DNA from: Pseudomonas sp. B21-056
GTDB lineage: Bacteria > Pseudomonadota > Gammaproteobacteria > Pseudomonadales > Pseudomonadaceae
Direction of reading: 5' to 3'
DNA: 64,000 bases
Assembly (NCBI RefSeq): GCF_026016325.1
Contig: NZ_CP087203.1
Coordinates: 62,001-126,000, forward strand
Below the pieces are notes generated by a model. That model made no database searches. It was not told the origin of the DNA and saw nothing but the letters and a program-made list of their open reading frames with translations. Position numbers and translations under genes: made by a program. Every line of letters begins with the position of its first letter. Position 1 is the stretch's first letter. Positions 24,972 through 32,329 of the stretch are shown one piece after another.

Positions 24972-25811
24972 ATGATCGCCATCACCGGAGCCTCCGGCCA
25001 ACTGGGCCGTCTCGTTATCCAGTCCCTGCTTGAAGGCGTGCCAGCCGAGCAAGTCATCGCCCTGGTCAGAGACCCCGGCAAAGTCCAGGACCTGGCCGCA
25101 CGGGGCGTGGTGGTACGCACCGCCGACTACAACCAACCGGCCACACTGGCTGCCGCGCTCCAAGGCGTCGATAAACTGCTGTTGATCTCCTCCAACGAAC
25201 TGGGCAACCGGGCTGCTCAACACCGCGCCGTGATCGATGCCGCCAAGGCCGCTGGTGTCACGCTCCTGGCCTACACCAGCGTCCTGCACGCCGATACCTC
25301 CACCTTGGGCTTGGCCGCCGAACATCGCGATACCGAAGAGGCCTTGAAGGCGTCGGGTATGCCGCACGTATTGCTGCGCAATGGCTGGTACAGCGAGAAC
25401 TACCTGGCGAACGTACCGAGTGCTGTGGAACACGGCGTCCTGCTCGGCAGCGCCGGCGAGGGGCGAATTAGCTCTGCGCCCCGTGCCGACTACGCGCAAG
25501 CCGCGGCGGTGGTGCTGACCACTGAGGGGCAGGCGGGCAAGGTCTATGAACTGGCGGGGGATAGCAGTTACACGTTGACCGAACTGGCTTCGTTGATCAG
25601 CGAGAAAACCGGTAAGCCGGTGGTTTATCAGAACCTGCCGCAGGCTGAGTTTGAGGCGGTGTTGATCAGTGTCGGGTTGCCAGCGGGGTTGGCGGCGTTG
25701 TTGGCAGATTCTGATGCGGCGGCGGCGAAAGGGGCGCTGTTTGATGAGAGTGGAGTGCTGGGGCGGTTGATTGGGCGGGGGACTACGCCGGTTGCGGAGT
25801 CTTTGAGTTAA
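24972..25811 (+). CDS. qorB: NAD(P)H-dependent quinone reductase of the QorB/YtfG type
   Basis: Atypical SDR (NmrA-like) protein of 279 residues beginning MIAITGASGQLGRLVIQSLL with the NADP-binding motif TGASGQLG at 5-12. LLLISSNELGNRAAQHRAVIDAAKAAGV, YTSVLHADTS and LRNGWYSENY match E. coli QorB, a quinone reductase that is paired with an HxlR regulator. The start at 24972 has AAGG upstream; the longer frame at 24876 reaches into the regulatory region and is rejected. Likely role: quinone or aldehyde stress response. Confidence 0.85.
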   Translation: MIAITGASGQLGRLVIQSLLEGVPAEQVIALVRDPGKVQDLAARGVVVRTADYNQPATLAAALQGVDKLLLISSNELGNRAAQHRAVIDAAKAAGVTLLAYTSVLHADTSTLGLAAEHRDTEEALKASGMPHVLLRNGWYSENYLANVPSAVEHGVLLGSAGEGRISSAPRADYAQAAAVVLTTEGQAGKVYELAGDSSYTLTELASLISEKTGKPVVYQNLPQAEFEAVLISVGLPAGLAALLADSDAAAAKGALFDESGVLGRLIGRGTTPVAESLS

Positions 25812-25853
25812 TCAATCGATTAGAAGGGAGAATAGTGGGGTCACGGGCCGGTT

Positions 25854-25881
25854 GAGATCGACCGGTCCACAGCGCTGGTGG
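25854..25881 (+). pseudogene. Possible remnant of an alpha/beta hydrolase gene
   Basis: This 28-nt segment matches 24023-24050 in the hydrolase gene at 25 of 28 positions and in the same reading sense (EIDR-TALV). A shared ATGGGC follows after a shorter gap, and the region of the catalytic serine is missing. Looks like the scar of a duplicated and mostly deleted copy. The rest of the 258-nt gap (25812-26069) shows no gene. Confidence 0.35.
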
Positions 25882-26069
25882 ATGATGGGCCTGATGCCGC
25901 TACGTCAGAGAGAAAGTGAATTTGTCCCCCTTTTCCTCTGTGGGGGATTCATAGCTGTGGGATGAGGTTTTTTGGAGATGTGGGCGCCAAAGTCGATTAA
26001 TGGCACTTTGCCTCAAATCGAAACGCCTATATAGTGCTGGATAACCGCACTATTAACAGGGACGTTGAA

Positions 26070-26375
26070 ATGAAAAAGCGCGATTTCCTGCTGCCCCTTG
26101 CCACTCTGACTGCCGCCGTAACCGCCAACCAAGCATCGGCCTCCGTTGCGATGACCAGCACCGATAAAGCAGATGAAAGCACCGCCCTTGAGAACCAAGT
26201 CGCGGCACTGCCAATCGTCAATGTTGGCGAGCAGATGGTCACCGGTCGCCAAGGCGATAACCTCTTCAGTTTTATCCTAAAGCGTGGTGAAGACGGCCAG
26301 ATGGTCGCTGCCCACTATTCGCATAGCTCACACGCGTCCCACAGTTCTCACAGCTCGCATTATTCGAGCCGCTGA
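26070..26375 (+). CDS. hxsA: His-Xaa-Ser repeat precursor peptide HxsA
   Basis: Precursor of 101 residues. The N-terminus (MKKRDFLLPLATLTAAVTA, then NQASAS) looks like a signal peptide with a cleavage site near AlaSerAla 22-24. A middle part (about 25-78) has no repeats. The C-terminus, residues 82-99, is six perfect His-Xaa-Ser units (HYS HSS HAS HSS HSS HYS) before a final SR. This is the defining substrate of the His-Xaa-Ser system. AGGGA lies before the ATG. The stop overlaps the hxsD start (TGATG), so the two are translationally coupled. Confidence 0.92.
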   Translation: MKKRDFLLPLATLTAAVTANQASASVAMTSTDKADESTALENQVAALPIVNVGEQMVTGRQGDNLFSFILKRGEDGQMVAAHYSHSSHASHSSHSSHYSSR

Positions 26376-26680
26376 TGGCCGGCCTCGCGGAGCTGACCTT
26401 CGACCGTCAGCTGTACGGAGCCGAAGCAATACAGAAGGCGGCATACCGTGCTATGCACGCCTTCACACTCGACTTGAAAGTCGACGGCGATAACATTCTC
26501 TGCACGCTGGTTGGCAATATCACAACTGAGCAGGAAGCCTTTGAGCGTGCCGTTGAAGAGTTCCGAAAGGACGTGCTCGACTATCAGTTGCGTGCGCAAC
26601 TTCAGGCTGAAACCGCCCCTATCCGCAACCTCATAATAGGGCTGGCCTTCTCCAACGCCAGGCTGAACCCAAGTGAGTAA
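26375..26680 (+). CDS. hxsD: His-Xaa-Ser system protein HxsD
   Basis: Small protein of 101 residues with no catalytic motif. It has an N-terminal alpha/beta part (LTFDRQLYGAEAIQKAAYRAM) and a conserved-looking segment EEFRKDVLDYQLRAQL, which corresponds to the N-D-Y-x-L-R region by which the HxsD family was defined. Always found with hxsB and hxsC in genomes with this system. It probably presents the HxsA peptide to the radical SAM enzymes, by analogy with precursor-recognition proteins; this is inference. Overlaps both neighbours. Confidence 0.88.
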   Translation: MAGLAELTFDRQLYGAEAIQKAAYRAMHAFTLDLKVDGDNILCTLVGNITTEQEAFERAVEEFRKDVLDYQLRAQLQAETAPIRNLIIGLAFSNARLNPSE

Positions 26681-28130
26681 ATTTCAGGGGCTGGATGCCT
26701 ATATCCGGAGCGCCAAATACGAACTGCTGCCGTTCAAGTTCGACCGTCTTGAAGGTGATAACTACGTCATTACCAACATGACCGGCGAGTACCTGGAGGT
26801 GGCAAAGCCAGAGTTGCACGTTCTCCTCGCCAAAGATCTTGCAACGGAGCATCCACTTTTCGCATCGCTGCGCGCCAAGCATTTCATTCGCTATGCCGAC
26901 GAGCAGGCGCCCCTTGATCTGCTCGCATTGAAACTGCGTACGAGACTCTCGCGACTGACAGGGTTCACCAGCTTGCACATCTTTGTGGTGACACTGCGCT
27001 GTGACCACAGCTGCCCCTATTGTCAGGTTTCGCGGCAAATGGATGGCGAAACTTCCTTCGACATGACGCCCGATATGGCGGACAAGGCTTTGGATTTCGT
27101 CTTCCGATCTCCCAATCCTGCGATCAAGATCGAGTTCCAGGGCGGCGAACCACTTTTGAATTTCGAAATGGTGCGCTACGTAGTAGAGGCTGCAAAGCGA
27201 CGGAGCCTGGAGGAAAAGCGTGATCTTGAGTTCGTCATTGCTACCACGTTGTCGCTGCTCACCGACGACGTCCTCGCGTTCTGCCACGAGCACGACATTA
27301 TTCTTTCGACGTCACTCGATGGCCCAGCAGACCTGCATAATGCAAATCGGCCACGCGTAGGTCGTGATAGTTTCGAACGCTTTGAAGCAGGCTTGGCCAA
27401 GGCTCGCAATGTCCTAGGCGTGGACAGAGTTAGCGCTCTGATGACAACCACTGACAAGAGCCTGCCTCGTGTCAGAGAGATCATCGACGAATACGTTCGA
27501 CTGGGTTTCAACGGTATATTCCTGCGGGCGCTTTCTCCGTATGGCTTCGCCATAAAAACACGCAAATTCATGACCTACGATACGGAGCGCTGGCTGGAGT
27601 TCTACAAGGAAGGCCTCGCCTATATCCTTGAACTGAACAAGGCTGGCGTCCCTTTCGTTGAGCACTATGCATCCCTGATTCTCAAGAAGATGCTTACCAG
27701 CAATGACCCGGGTTACGTCGACCTGATGAATCCCGCAGGCGCCGGTATCGCCGCGATCGTCTTCAACTATGACGGTTCAGTCTATGCCTCTGACGAGAGT
27801 CGAATGCTTGCAGAGATGGGGGATCAGACGTTCCGATTGGGCGATATCCTGACTGACAGCTACGAAGACATCATTCTTTCCGATGTACTGCTTGATGCCT
27901 TGGAACAGTCGTTCACTCTGAGCGCGCCAATGTGTTCCGACTGCGCTTTTGAATCCTACTGCGGCGCCGAACCGGTGTTCCATCACGCCATATTCAAGGA
28001 CGTTCTAGGTAGAAAGGCTGAGTCCTCGTTCTGCAAGCGGAACATGTCGATCTTCAAACACCTTATCGGCCTGATGAACTCAGACGCCTCTACTCGCCGC
28101 CTCTTCATGCAATGGGCTAACGCATGCTGA
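26673..28130 (+). CDS. hxsB: Radical SAM maturase HxsB
   Basis: Radical SAM/SPASM-type enzyme of 485 residues from a GTG start that overlaps the end of hxsD by 8 nt. The 4Fe-4S motif CDHSCPYC is at Cys110, Cys114 and Cys117, and the SAM-site glycines are in EFQGGEPLLNFE. Residues 310-470 carry a second cysteine set (MCSDCAFESYC, then SSFC) typical of SPASM auxiliary clusters. Acts with HxsC on the His-Xaa-Ser region of HxsA. The chemistry of the modification is not deducible from sequence. Confidence 0.92.
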   Translation: MSKFQGLDAYIRSAKYELLPFKFDRLEGDNYVITNMTGEYLEVAKPELHVLLAKDLATEHPLFASLRAKHFIRYADEQAPLDLLALKLRTRLSRLTGFTSLHIFVVTLRCDHSCPYCQVSRQMDGETSFDMTPDMADKALDFVFRSPNPAIKIEFQGGEPLLNFEMVRYVVEAAKRRSLEEKRDLEFVIATTLSLLTDDVLAFCHEHDIILSTSLDGPADLHNANRPRVGRDSFERFEAGLAKARNVLGVDRVSALMTTTDKSLPRVREIIDEYVRLGFNGIFLRALSPYGFAIKTRKFMTYDTERWLEFYKEGLAYILELNKAGVPFVEHYASLILKKMLTSNDPGYVDLMNPAGAGIAAIVFNYDGSVYASDESRMLAEMGDQTFRLGDILTDSYEDIILSDVLLDALEQSFTLSAPMCSDCAFESYCGAEPVFHHAIFKDVLGRKAESSFCKRNMSIFKHLIGLMNSDASTRRLFMQWANAC

Positions 28131-29287
28131 AACTCGCTGGGAAGGTCGGGCGAATCCAACTGGTCGAAGTCCGGGATCGTCCATTGTTACTGCAGGTCAG
28201 CACCAATCCGGCGTTCCCAATGGTGCTGCGGGCGACGCGAGCGTTCTTGGTTTCTGAACAGGAATTGCCTGAAGGCTACCTACATTATTTGATTCCCGAG
28301 GCTCTTGAACGGCGTGTGGAAGAACTGGAGGGGAAGAGCTCATTTACCTTACTGCCCAACGACTATCACTATCTCGGGCACGACGACATTATCCGCTTAG
28401 ATGGGCAGGCGATTCGGGTGCTCTTCAGGGCTAATTCCGGACACAACTCGCTGCTGGTGACCGAGCAGTGCAACCACTACTGCCTGATGTGTTCTCAACC
28501 ACCCAAGAACGTTGACGACAGCTGGATCCTCGATGAGCTCGAAGCACTCATTCCCCTGATCCCGAGGGAAACACCCGAGGTAGGGTTCTCAGGTGGAGAA
28601 CCAACTCTGGCTGGGGCTCGATTCATCAATCTCATTCGGATGATGAAGTCCTACCTCCCCAGAACTGTCGTGCACGTACTCTCAAACGGGCGCACGTTTG
28701 CCGATGAGTCGTTTGCTCGCCAGTACGCAGAGATCGATCATCCCGACATCATGATCGGGATCCCGCTTTACTCTGATGATCCAAACTTGCATGACTACAT
28801 CGTGCAGGCGCCTGGAGCATTTCACGAGACGGTCCAGGGGATACTCAATCTCAAGCGTCTGAACCAGAAGGTTGAAATTCGGATCGTTCTGCACAAGCAG
28901 TCGATCAGCCGCCTGCCGCAACTGTGCGAGTATATCGCACGGAACCTACTCTTCGTTGATCACGTGACGCTGATGGGATTGGAAATGATTGGCTTCACGC
29001 GGGCCAATCTGGAAGCCTTGTGGATCGACCCCGCAGACTACCGAGACGTTCTGAGCGAAGCTGTAGGTATTTTGGCTGCTTATCGAATGAACGTGTCTGT
29101 CTATAACCACCAGTTGTGCCTGGTGAACGACGACGTGCTCCCCTACTACCGAAAATCCATCAGCGATTGGAAGAATGAGTACGTGCCAGAGTGTGATGGC
29201 TGCGCACGTAAGTCTGAATGCGGTGGCTTCTTTTCTTCTGGTGTACGTAATGGATACAGCAGAGGTATTACCCCTTTTTTCCGATGA
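28124..29287 (+). CDS. hxsC: Radical SAM maturase HxsC
   Basis: Radical SAM enzyme of 387 residues. The 4Fe-4S motif CNHYCLMC has Cys116, Cys120 and Cys123, with GFSGGEPTLAG as the SAM site. A short C-terminal cysteine cluster (CDGCARKSEC) suggests a partial SPASM or twitch region. It is the second of the paired enzymes that define the system, overlapping hxsB by 7 nt. The C-terminal tail GYSRGITPFFR is as short as expected. Base composition becomes AT-richer right after this gene. Confidence 0.92.
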   Translation: MLKLAGKVGRIQLVEVRDRPLLLQVSTNPAFPMVLRATRAFLVSEQELPEGYLHYLIPEALERRVEELEGKSSFTLLPNDYHYLGHDDIIRLDGQAIRVLFRANSGHNSLLVTEQCNHYCLMCSQPPKNVDDSWILDELEALIPLIPRETPEVGFSGGEPTLAGARFINLIRMMKSYLPRTVVHVLSNGRTFADESFARQYAEIDHPDIMIGIPLYSDDPNLHDYIVQAPGAFHETVQGILNLKRLNQKVEIRIVLHKQSISRLPQLCEYIARNLLFVDHVTLMGLEMIGFTRANLEALWIDPADYRDVLSEAVGILAAYRMNVSVYNHQLCLVNDDVLPYYRKSISDWKNEYVPECDGCARKSECGGFFSSGVRNGYSRGITPFFR

Positions 29288-29356
29288 TGGGTGAAAGGAC
29301 CCGATTTACTATCTGAAATAATTCTGTCCCTTTTTCTATCCAAAGGACCATCTGGC

Positions 29357-31492
29357 ATGGCAGTAGATATCCTAGTCACGACAGAAAGACTGCAAGACGA
29401 TCCCCTTGGCAGAGATCTTATTGAATCGCTAAAAAATTCTGAAAGCGCTATAAACTCCTCACCTTCGGCGCTCTACTATGATTTTCCTGTTTATTCAGAC
29501 TATGACGGCGTAGATCATAAGCCAGACATTTTGGTACTTAGCCGCAGTTGCGGGATTCTTGCCATCCAGGTGATTACTGCAATCCAGGCCGATCGTGATA
29601 GCACCAGCAGCCTATTAGCTGTAGATGATTCGCTTAATCAATTTTGTAGCATCCTAATAGGACGGCTATTAAAGAGTAAGGTATTAAGAAAGTCGCGTTC
29701 ACAGCTTTCACTGAATGTCACGCCAATAATATTTTGCGACAGTAAATTAGCAAATAGGATTTTTGATTCTAGCGACTCTGAAATTGTCTCTTCAATGGAG
29801 TCGCTGACAGACCTAATTCAGAATCTTGAAGGAGAGCTTTTAGATACAGATGCATATGACGAAGCCCGCTCAGTAATTGAAGGTGCTAAAGCTCTCACCC
29901 GATCAAACAAGCGCTTAGTAGAAAACCCAGAGCTCCAGCGTGCGGCCAGTGCATTAGCTGAACTTGAATCTGAAATCGCAAACTTTGACCAAAAGCAGCG
30001 CTCTGCGGCCTTGATAACTATTAATGGTCCTCAACGGATACGAGGACTTGCCGGCTCCGGGAAAACTATCATTTTGGCGATGAAGGCCGCACACCTTCAT
30101 ATGAACAGACCAAATGACAAAATTCTCCTGACTTTTTATACAAAGAGCTTGAAATCTTCCATAAAAAATTTGGTTACCAAGTTTTATAGGCACTATAAAG
30201 AAGTTGACCCAGACTGGAACAACATCCACATATTGCATGGTTGGGGTGGTTCAAATACCAGCGGTGCCTATTCCGACGCTTGCTTACGCGCAGGGAGAAC
30301 ACCTCTTACCTTTGGTACCGCCCGCTCGGGGGCACCTGGTGGTATTGACCCATTTGAATTTGCATGCCAAGACCTGATGCAGAAAAGTAATATCGAAGAG
30401 TACTATGACCATATTCTCATCGATGAAGGGCAAGACTTTCCCGCTGCATTTTATGAGTTAGGTTTTCGGCTTGCGAAAGGCCATCGAGACAGAAAAAATA
30501 TTGTTTGGGCGTACGACGACCTTCAAAACATCATGAAGGTGAGAATGCGAAGTGCCGTTGAATTGTTTGGGATAGATCAAGATGGTGAGCCGCGCATATC
30601 ACTTGAGCGGGCAGCAATAGGCCTACCGTTTAAATTTACTAACGACACTGTACTTAGCAAATGCTATCGCAACCAGAGAGAGGTCCTCGTCACTGCTCAC
30701 GCGCTTGGATTTGGAATCTATTCTAACATCGTACAATTACTTGAAAGTGCTGACCATTGGAAAGACGTCGGCTACGAAGTAACTTCTCCTAACTATGATG
30801 CCAACGCTAAAGTAGAAGTGGTGCGCCCTGCTGAAAACAGCCCAGTTACATTGAGCGGAGAAAAACTACCCGAGCTGATAAAGCAGTACAATGCCCAGTC
30901 AATGGATGATGAAACAGACTGGGTCGTAACCTCGATATCTGATTTTTTAGAGCAAGGCTTAAATCCGGAGGATATTATGATTGTTGCTCTGGATGATCGT
31001 CATATGAAGGGCTACTTTAAGGAACTGTCTTCGAAGCTGGCGCACCTTGGGATCGCGTCGAATAATATTCACGCAGATCCATATTCGGACCCACCCTTTA
31101 CTATACCCAATAAGGTTACTCTCTCCACAATTTATCGTGCCAAAGGCAATGAGGCAGCTGTAGTATTCGTTATTGGCGTCGACGCCATCTCACTCAAAAC
31201 GCGAGGAGATCGTAACAAGTTATTTACAGCACTTACACGTACGAAAGCGTGGCTTCGTGTCTCTGGAATGCAAGGGTCTACCAGTAAAATTATTCATGAG
31301 ATGCATGAAGCAGAGAAAAACTTCCCTGCTTTACGTTTCACTATGCCTGATCTTTCCAAGCTCGATATGATCCAGCGAGATCTCGGTCAGCGCTCTATCA
31401 AAGCCAAAAAACTAAGAGCTGAGTATTTAGAAAGTCTTCGTCGTGAAGGATTGTCTGAAGAAGATGCCGACTTGGACTACGATGATGAATAG
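29357..31492 (+). CDS. UvrD/Rep-like helicase with degenerate nuclease-like N-terminus
   Basis: Protein of 711 residues. About 40-75 is a NERD/PD-(D/E)XK-like strand pair (KPDILVLSRSCGILAIQV) in which the usual E-x-K is replaced by Q-V-I. About 210-660 is a superfamily 1 helicase: Q motif FDQKQ, Walker A GLAGSGKT at 230-237, Walker B with DEGQDFP, and motif VI LFTALTRTK. The tail from about 660 is charged. The start at 29357 is chosen over the GTG at 29291 because AAAGGA lies 9 nt upstream. AT-rich compared with its neighbours, suggesting recent transfer. Overlaps the DUF2290 gene, so they form one unit, probably antiviral. Confidence 0.85.
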   Translation: MAVDILVTTERLQDDPLGRDLIESLKNSESAINSSPSALYYDFPVYSDYDGVDHKPDILVLSRSCGILAIQVITAIQADRDSTSSLLAVDDSLNQFCSILIGRLLKSKVLRKSRSQLSLNVTPIIFCDSKLANRIFDSSDSEIVSSMESLTDLIQNLEGELLDTDAYDEARSVIEGAKALTRSNKRLVENPELQRAASALAELESEIANFDQKQRSAALITINGPQRIRGLAGSGKTIILAMKAAHLHMNRPNDKILLTFYTKSLKSSIKNLVTKFYRHYKEVDPDWNNIHILHGWGGSNTSGAYSDACLRAGRTPLTFGTARSGAPGGIDPFEFACQDLMQKSNIEEYYDHILIDEGQDFPAAFYELGFRLAKGHRDRKNIVWAYDDLQNIMKVRMRSAVELFGIDQDGEPRISLERAAIGLPFKFTNDTVLSKCYRNQREVLVTAHALGFGIYSNIVQLLESADHWKDVGYEVTSPNYDANAKVEVVRPAENSPVTLSGEKLPELIKQYNAQSMDDETDWVVTSISDFLEQGLNPEDIMIVALDDRHMKGYFKELSSKLAHLGIASNNIHADPYSDPPFTIPNKVTLSTIYRAKGNEAAVVFVIGVDAISLKTRGDRNKLFTALTRTKAWLRVSGMQGSTSKIIHEMHEAEKNFPALRFTMPDLSKLDMIQRDLGQRSIKAKKLRAEYLESLRREGLSEEDADLDYDDE

Positions 31493-32186
31493 ACAGGATA
31501 TTCAGTCAGGAATCCACAAAAGTTGGAGTTTAGCGGATAAGCTTGGACTGGCTGCAGCATTTAGCAATCCAAACCTACTACCACTAAATGCTGAATTTCG
31601 AGACGCGATTCTTTCGGCAGATTGCACGTACATCGACGTCTATCTCGTAGCGATGAACTTATCCCATCACAATATTATTTTGTCTGACTATTCATACTTT
31701 CAATTCAGCATGGAGCGTGACGGTTACGTGCGCTACGCCTATTATCCCAATCCTTTTATTTCAGGAAAAGAATCAGACACCACGTCTTTCAAAAAGCTCA
31801 CTGAGCTTTTTGAAAACGAGTTTATTTCCCATGAGCAGTATCTTAGCCTCCTAGACAGCAAGAAGAGCTTGAACGGAAAGCCTATGTGGAGATACGAGAA
31901 CGCTCCTGATCAACGCAAGCGTTTTTTTCATCCGTGCTCACATTTTCATATTGGATTCCATTCTGAAAATCGCTGGCCACTAAAGAGAACTCTTACCCCT
32001 CTAGCCTTCTCAATGTTGGTTTTCAAACAATATTACGGAGAAGCTTGGAGGGCGTTCGGTGATGACGACGATCCTGAAATTGGCAACTCATTTGAGAGAG
32101 CATTGATCCGGGAGCGCCAAAACTGCCACATAGTTCCTGATGATCTATTCGAAAAAATAGAAGAACAGGCATTTTTCTTTTCCTAG
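31482..32186 (+). CDS. DUF2290-family protein
   Basis: Protein of 234 residues (MMNRQDIQSGIHKSWSLADK at the N-terminus). The central HPCSHFHIGFHSENRWPLKR, then LTPLAFSMLVF, is the conserved core by which I place it in DUF2290; clustered histidines may form a metal or catalytic site, not proven. The start overlaps the helicase stop by 11 nt (ATGATGAA). AT-rich. Helicase plus DUF2290 pairs have, as I remember, been listed as putative defence systems; that should be confirmed. Partner of the preceding helicase. Confidence 0.75.
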   Translation: MMNRQDIQSGIHKSWSLADKLGLAAAFSNPNLLPLNAEFRDAILSADCTYIDVYLVAMNLSHHNIILSDYSYFQFSMERDGYVRYAYYPNPFISGKESDTTSFKKLTELFENEFISHEQYLSLLDSKKSLNGKPMWRYENAPDQRKRFFHPCSHFHIGFHSENRWPLKRTLTPLAFSMLVFKQYYGEAWRAFGDDDDPEIGNSFERALIRERQNCHIVPDDLFEKIEEQAFFFS

Positions 32187-32329
32187 CCTTTTGTCATAGA
32201 ACGCTTCGAGCGTCCGCCATTGGTCGTCGCAGCTTTTGTTGAAAGGGCTGTGTGGGAGGTGAGGAACGGTTGCTGTTGGAAAATTTCTTATTTAGAGATA
32301 GTTCATCCACATCTATAGATGAACGCACC

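What the first reader, a model, noticed from the sequence alone, without database searches (positions are those of the whole stretch)
26070..29287. Complete His-Xaa-Ser (hxsADBC) peptide-maturation cassette
Four tightly overlapping genes (overlaps of 1, 8 and 7 nt): a precursor with six perfect His-Xaa-Ser repeats at its C-terminus, a small HxsD, and two different radical SAM enzymes. The seen facts are the repeats, the CxxxCxxC motifs in both enzymes and the overlaps. Family knowledge gives the name. What the modification is, why two enzymes are needed and what the product does are open as far as I know.
Basis: partly seen in the sequence, partly recalled or inferred. Interest (0 to 1): 0.8.

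Follow-up and report, generated by a model that had tools for sequence, protein, structure and literature searches.

The report
His-Xaa-Ser peptide-modification gene cassette
Four adjacent Pseudomonas genes encode a probably exported protein ending in six His-x-Ser repeats and two radical-SAM enzymes that probably modify those repeats; it is a typical member of a known family whose chemistry and purpose are still unknown.

Summary
At 26,070-29,287 four genes overlapping by 1, 8 and 7 nt encode a 101-aa precursor with six tandem His-Xaa-Ser units, HxsD, and two radical SAM enzymes. All four pass NCBIfam's curated cut-offs; the precursor is subtype HxsA2. It is an ordinary member of a catalogued system whose product I could not find reported.

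Comparison adds detail. Six HxS units occur in 42 of 53 distinct precursors, none with Cys in leader or core, which argues against thioethers. HxsA2 starts like a signal peptide, and sister-type HxsA proteins carry peptidoglycan-binding domains. Each enzyme has 3+4 conserved Cys. HxsB keeps the AuxII ligands of a SPASM domain and has none of the AuxI ones, as reported for some AhbD proteins. HxsB's model matches CteB over nearly its whole length; HxsD's model is not a winged helix. Promoter plus cassette recur as a ~3.3-kb block in unrelated surroundings.

Best guess: HxsB and HxsC cross-link His and Ser within each triad (-2 Da each) before export. The chemistry is inferred, not shown.

The parts
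25994..26035 (+). conserved promoter-like stretch: upstream box CGATTAATGGCAC (25,994-26,006), -35-like TTGCCT (26,008-26,013), 16-nt spacer, -10-like TATAGT (26,030-26,035)
   Evidence: Conserved in the window and its five nearest relatives L033/L051 and L052-L055. The consensus scan finds it as the only promoter-like site in 25,800-29,700, but shuffles give 2.7 by chance. The more distant Pseudomonas loci L056-L071 have a different upstream element (ATTGACATCA) instead.
26070..26375 (+). hxsA2, precursor, 101 aa
   Evidence: NF038296 109 bits, cut-off 48
26070..26141 (+). signal-peptide-like N-terminus of HxsA2 (MKKRDFLLPLATLTAAVTANQASA)
   Evidence: Positive start, hydrophobic peak from residue 7, A-x-A end; similar starts in relatives. 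No signal-peptide program was run.
26265..26285 (+). leader motif F-S-F-I-L-K-R, 9 residues before the core
   Evidence: F-x-F-[VI]-L-K-[RK] recurs in most A2-type precursors, not in the peptidoglycan-binding type
26313..26366 (+). core: six tandem His-Xaa-Ser triads
26375..26680 (+). hxsD, 101 aa; predicted beta-alpha-beta-beta-long alpha, invariant D69, L72, R73, T80 on the long helix
   Evidence: TIGR03976 63.8 bits, cut-off 50; alignment of 41; model pLDDT 90.5
26673..28130 (+). hxsB, radical SAM enzyme, 485 aa
   Evidence: TIGR03978 622.7 bits, cut-off 370; model pLDDT 86.4
26718..26963 (+). HxsB residues 16-97: RRE-like N-terminal domain (inferred)
   Evidence: Strand and helix order in the model; structural match to CteB starts at residue 19 and to TigE at 12; profile comparison with PqqD negative
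27000..27023 (+). HxsB radical SAM motif C110-x3-C114-x2-C117
27789..27797 (+). HxsB S373-D374-E375 at the place of the third AuxI Cys of anSME and its following Asp
   Evidence: Alignment to 4k37; invariant in 62 of 62 rows
27933..28034 (+). HxsB C421, C424, C430, C454: AuxII-type ligand set CX2CX5CX23C
   Evidence: 61, 61, 62 and 61 of 62 rows; the exception is L043
28124..29287 (+). hxsC, second radical SAM enzyme, 387 aa
   Evidence: TIGR03977 401.5 bits, cut-off 267.9
28469..28492 (+). HxsC radical SAM motif C116-x3-C120-x2-C123
29117..29221 (+). HxsC C332, C357, C360, C366: one auxiliary cluster set CX24CX2CX5C
   Evidence: 64 of 64 rows each

Best explanation
This is an HxsA2-D-B-C cassette. 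HxsA2 is made in the cytoplasm with a signal peptide, a leader motif (F-x-F-I/V-L-K-R) and a core of six H-x-S triads. HxsB, holding the leader with its N-terminal RRE-like domain, and HxsC, with HxsD as an adaptor, modify the triads by radical chemistry. The most likely modification is a cross-link inside each triad between the His and Ser side chains (a three-residue cyclophane, for example His C2 to Ser C-beta, -2 Da per triad, up to -12 Da). The protein is then exported by the general secretory route and stays in the cell envelope as a stiff, His-lined rod. Shown: genes, families, repeats, conservation, Cys pattern, predicted folds, linkage. Inferred: RRE function, HxsD's role, export, cross-link type, envelope role. 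The confidence below is for modification of the triads followed by export; the cross-link type alone I put at about 0.35.
Against: HxsB lacks AuxI, the electron acceptor proposed for anSME and observed in SuiB, which an oxidative cross-link would be expected to need. HxsB scores far below the cut-offs of the cyclophane enzyme models: YhhB 66 of 445, AmcB 48.5 of 425, FxsB 42.4 of 370, GrrM/OscB 39 of 310. The RRE is not seen by profile comparison. No signal-peptide program was run. No Hxs chemistry is reported in what I searched.
Confidence: 0.6

Rival explanations
1. HxsB oxidises the Ser of each triad to formylglycine, as anaerobic sulfatase-maturating enzymes do, and HxsC does a further step, for example joining the aldehyde to His.
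Against: All AuxI ligands of anSME are missing in HxsB; NCBIfam anSME model 68.6 bits against a cut-off of 349.45; it does not explain why the His is kept.
Confidence: 0.15
2. The chemistry is redox-neutral, such as epimerisation of His or Ser, with no cross-link.
Against: EpeE is a much weaker match than CteB and anSME; epimerisation alone would not need both His and Ser.
Confidence: 0.15
3. The product is a periplasmic metal-binding protein: the six in-register His bind copper, nickel, zinc or iron, and the modification tunes this.
For: Six His at period three; His-based copper-binding RiPPs exist (noursin, PMC11002830 passages). It is compatible with the best explanation, as a role rather than a chemistry.
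Against: No metal transporter or regulator recurs next to the cassette.
Confidence: 0.25
4. The cassette is a defence or competition system.
For: In the window it lies directly before a Helicase-DUF2290 candidate anti-phage pair; the cassette is mobile.
Against: Around 17 other loci PADLOC models matched somewhat more ORFs than in control regions (at most 15 of 135 against at most 7 of 131), but shared flanks count several times and general helicases and regulators are among them, so no enrichment is shown. HxsB and HxsC match only viperin models, weakly (27.4 and 33.9 bits).
Confidence: 0.08

Closest known systems
His-Xaa-Ser system, HxsA2 subtype (NCBIfam NF038296, TIGR03976, TIGR03977, TIGR03978)
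   Same: All four components over the curated cut-offs and in one overlapping gene set; same order A2-D-B-C in relatives.
   Different: Nothing that I could test. Pseudomonas also has a second type with order D-B-C-A and a peptidoglycan-binding HxsA.
Triceptides and three-residue cyclophane-forming enzymes (HaaB, YhhB, ScaB, MscB)
   Same: The triad H-x-S has the aromatic residue at i and the partner at i+2; His and Ser each have a precedent in this role.
   Different: HxsB is far below the cut-offs of these enzyme models; the six-fold tandem core, the second radical SAM enzyme and HxsD; no cross-link shown.
Bicyclostreptin cluster hghABCD
   Same: Precursor, two radical SAM enzymes and one small protein; acts on Ser and His (PMC11002830 passages).
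   Different: HghD is called an RRE protein there, whereas HxsD is not predicted to have that fold; a His-Gly-His core rather than HxS repeats. Sequences were not compared.
CteB, RumMC and anSME (RRE and/or radical SAM plus SPASM enzymes)
   Same: Fold over nearly all of HxsB; AuxII spacing CX2CX5CX21C in anSME and RumMC2 against CX2CX5CX23C in HxsB; RRE placed at 16-94 in RumMC2, as in HxsB's model at 16-97.
   Different: HxsB has no AuxI ligands; its substrate has no Cys.
AhbD proteins that keep only AuxII
   Same: Loss of AuxI Cys with Ser and Glu in their places and AuxII kept (PMC10452713, passages); HxsB has S373-D374-E375 there.
   Different: A haem-synthesis enzyme, not a peptide-modifying one; no direct alignment made. 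The paper says that none of the AuxII-only AhbDs had been studied biochemically.

Membership tests
His-Xaa-Ser system (HxsA2 subtype) | HxsA2, HxsD, HxsB and HxsC over curated profile cut-offs | tested here: met
His-Xaa-Ser system (HxsA2 subtype) | Tandem His-Xaa-Ser repeats in the precursor, genes adjacent | tested here: met
His-Xaa-Ser system (HxsA2 subtype) | Modification of the repeat by HxsB and HxsC | not testable with these tools
   needs mass spectrometry
Original HxsA (TIGR03979) | Profile cut-off | tested here: not met
   26.1 bits against 121.65
Triceptide / three-residue cyclophane enzymes | Enzyme over the cut-off of a cyclophane-enzyme model | tested here: not met
   YhhB 66 of 445, AmcB 48.5 of 425, FxsB 42.4 of 370, GrrM/OscB 39 of 310
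Triceptide / three-residue cyclophane enzymes | Aromatic ring to C-beta bond between i and i+2 | not testable with these tools
   the sequence motif is compatible
Sactipeptide / ranthipeptide | Cys in the core for a thioether | tested here: not met
   no Cys in window HxsA2, none in leader+core of 53 of 53 precursors
SPASM domain with two auxiliary clusters | Seven-Cys motif, ligands for AuxI and AuxII | tested here: not met
   HxsB has the AuxII set only; Pfam SPASM 14.2 bits against 21.5
Twitch domain | Lacks the CX2CX5CX3C part and keeps one auxiliary cluster | tested here: not met
   HxsB keeps CX2CX5C. This follows the definition in PMC5715301; PMC10452713 words it more widely, as three or four Cys for one cluster, which both enzymes would fit.
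RRE (PqqD-like) domain in HxsB N-terminus | Winged-helix fold and profile similarity | tested here: inconclusive
   structure match includes the N-terminal part of CteB and TigE; profile comparison with 9 PqqD-like sequences negative
RRE domain in HxsD | Winged-helix fold | tested here: inconclusive
   the model has another order of elements and weak matches to ferredoxin-like, KH and Pcc1 folds; profile comparison negative

The most novel reading that the evidence does not exclude
HxsB is a peptide-modifying enzyme that has lost AuxI, kept AuxII and turned the AuxI site into an invariant Ser-Asp-Glu motif. With HxsC and a non-RRE adaptor (HxsD) it turns (HxS)6 into a continuous ladder of His-Ser cyclophanes: a rigid rod exported to the periplasm and, in the sister type, tethered to peptidoglycan. 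This would be a modified structural element of the envelope rather than a small secreted natural product.
Probability: 0.2. Interest if true: 0.72.

Novelty: new member of a known kind. Interest (0 to 1): 0.37.

Why it matters
The system is widespread: HxsB passes the cut-off in 39 of 298 sampled genomes of the genus and matches in 407 plasmid records at E 1e-40, 315 of them Klebsiella. I found no reported product or role. The anatomy here makes the open question testable: a predicted mass shift, two rather than three iron-sulfur clusters per enzyme, the place of HxsA2 and the need for HxsD. If HxsB works without AuxI, it would bear on what auxiliary clusters do, a point that the AhbD paper calls open.

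Tried and rejected
Thioether chemistry: rejected, no Cys in leader or core. HxsD as an RRE: not supported by its model; no sequence match in the PDB at a useful E-value. HxsB N-terminus as PqqD by profile: no match (one search was a first run with a wrong alignment option). Sigma-54 promoter: the spacing of GG and GC in TGGCACTTTGCC does not fit the recalled rule. Terminal repeats at the cassette ends: no shared 8-mers, direct or inverted. Defence-island enrichment: not shown (test 135 ORFs of 17 loci, control 131 ORFs of 15 regions; one control ORF, L151:5349-10574, was left out to keep within the residue cap; 5 of the 20 fetched control regions were not used; the window was not in the test set). 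E. coli: no match by blastn with the cassette. Phages: 6 records at E 1e-10, 2 covering at least 80% of HxsB. AuxII-only as something unheard of: dropped after reading passages on AhbD.

Rows dropped before counts: HxsB L103, L105, L079, L078; HxsC L068, L105; HxsD L078; rows L031-L040 were left out because most repeat named loci. In HxsB the only row without all four auxiliary Cys is L043, whose family match ends early. Gene starts in relatives were chosen by script, so overlaps there (D-B in 44 of 53, B-C in 49 of 54) depend on that. The correlation of HxsB with HxsC and HxsD identities (r 0.94 and 0.89, 30 loci) also reflects relatedness of the hosts.
Full report
What is there. The four genes and their overlaps are as described. 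NCBIfam names them HxsA2, HxsD, HxsB and HxsC, all above curated cut-offs. The window lies in a 6.45-Mb one-contig genome with a single HxsB match. The host is taken to be Pseudomonas because the nearest named loci are: the first 21 rows are all Pseudomonas, with Pseudomonas sp. ICMP22404 at 99% HxsB identity. The finding is real and an ordinary member of a catalogued system.

The precursor. HxsA2 has a signal-peptide-like start, a variable spacer, a leader motif FSFILKR ending 9 residues before the core, and (HxS)6 followed by two residues. Over 53 distinct leader+core sequences (window and loci L041-L104 that have a run of at least three units) six units occur in 42, seven in 6, five in 3, four and eight in 1 each; the four-unit case, L068, looks broken. 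Xaa varies (S 153, A 49, Y 42, R 35, T 11, H 10, others 21), with Tyr in the last unit in 28 of 42 six-unit proteins. His and Ser are fixed by the way the runs were sought, so the evidence is the length and regularity of the runs. The six DNA units differ (4-8 of 9 bases shared; all six Ser codons used), so selection acts on the protein.

Where it goes. Three HxsA proteins of the other type that I tested, all over the TIGR03979 cut-off, carry PG_binding_1 after the repeat. L102 (Polyangium) has a PEGA domain just over its cut-off (its start was my choice). A Hymenobacter plasmid has a protein annotated as peptidoglycan-binding in the HxsA position. With the hydrophobic start this suggests an envelope product. 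No signal-peptide program was run.

The enzymes. In 62 aligned HxsB and 64 HxsC rows (25 and 26 after reduction to 80% identity) each has three radical SAM Cys and four more near the C-terminus. The HxsC ones are present in 64 of 64; the HxsB ones in 61, 61, 62 and 61 of 62, L043 being the exception. anSME ligates AuxI with C255, C261, C276, C330 and AuxII with C317, C320, C326, C348 (PMC5715301, passages). HxsB's C421/C424/C430/C454 are the AuxII set. S373 and P434 stand where C276 and C330 are, and columns 300-420 have a Cys only in single or two rows. So HxsB should lack AuxI. Such proteins are known by sequence: many AhbDs from non-methanogenic archaea keep only AuxII, with two Ser and one Glu in place of AuxI Cys, and had not been studied biochemically (PMC10452713, passages). 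For HxsB I found no such statement under its name, in a library of open-licence papers only. AuxI accepts the electron in SuiB (PMC9012708, passages) and is proposed to in anSME, so HxsB must pass the electron elsewhere or run a redox-neutral reaction. HxsC's set C332-x24-C357-x2-C360-x5-C366 has no Cys after it in the window protein and may be one cluster of its own kind.

Linkage and mobility. HxsB and HxsC were found in 75 of 75 loci, within 112 nt of each other in all but L105; the 75 are not independent, as several of L031-L040 repeat genomes of L051-L105. HxsD was found by profile in 71 of 75: L041 and L042 have another small protein there, L103 is cut by its contig end and L105 looks broken. 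In 50 genomes picked by hand, HxsA2-profile matches occur in 22 of 23 with HxsB (one of the 23, G208, has only a fragment) and 0 of 27 without; the missing one, G119, has an HxsA over the TIGR03979 cut-off. Nine of the 22 fall below the A2 cut-off because they match the repeat part only. In L052-L055 the only DNA of 150 bases or more shared with window 14,001-42,000 runs from 25,993-25,995 to 29,264-29,278, promoter to hxsC end; L031, a longer piece of the L054 genome, has one further 207-nt match elsewhere. Twenty-two A2-type Pseudomonas loci, the window included, fall into 9 groups by flanking DNA; L052, L060 and L068 were too short to enter. HxsB relatives are also on plasmids (407 records) and in a Leptospira phage.

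How it most likely works. No Cys, so no thioether. His and Ser recur together at fixed spacing, so probably both take part. His C2 to i+2 cross-links are known from HaaB, YhhB and ScaB, and a Ser C-beta acceptor from MscB (PMC11002830, passages). The weak point is the missing AuxI acceptor. D374, aligned with the Asp after anSME's third AuxI Cys, keeps formylglycine open; that this Asp is anSME's catalytic base is recalled and one search returned nothing. Both routes give -2 Da per triad.

Other papers seen. PMC9062424 (passages) places HxsB and HxsC in separate clusters of a network and calls their role putative; PMC8446631 and PMC6537148 (passages) list the system in genomic-island regions.

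Judgement. A known kind, complete and conserved. What could be new is the AuxII-only reading for a peptide-modifying enzyme and the envelope-rod picture; neither is proven.

Noticed in passing
29291-32186: Two genes directly downstream match PADLOC models Helicase (PDLC03002, 470.7 bits) and DUF2290 (PDLC02998, 45.1 bits; also Pfam PF10053): a Helicase-DUF2290 candidate anti-phage system.
   Followed up: partly
25820-32289: Against the nearest relative (L033/L051) homology breaks off between an NmrA-family gene and about 32,289, except for the hxs cassette: what lies on either side of it differs (1.4 kb against 0.17 kb upstream, 4.6 kb against 3.0 kb downstream). This looks like a variable spot in which the cassette was kept.
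   Followed up: partly
L084:8615-8914 and L095:277-552: A second HxsA2-like match lies in the same locus (48 and 32 bits), so some cassettes may have two precursors.
   Followed up: no
L094:5130-5672: One precursor has two HxS runs, of six and five units, separated by a Gly-rich stretch.
   Followed up: no
L041:10290-10577, L042:7652-7975: In two Pseudomonas cassettes a small protein that the HxsD profile does not find sits in the HxsD place.
   Followed up: no
L056-L071, upstream of hxsA2: The more distant Pseudomonas cassettes share another upstream element, ATTGACATCA, in place of the TATAGT promoter of the window group.
   Followed up: no
L068, L105: Cassettes that look broken: in L068 the precursor leaves the repeat after four units and hxsC is short; in L105 hxsB and hxsC are short and 1.4 kb apart.
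   Followed up: no
L135:7690-8256: On a Leptospira phage the hxsADBC cassette is followed by a gene annotated 'mobilome CxxCx(11)CxxC protein'.
   Followed up: no
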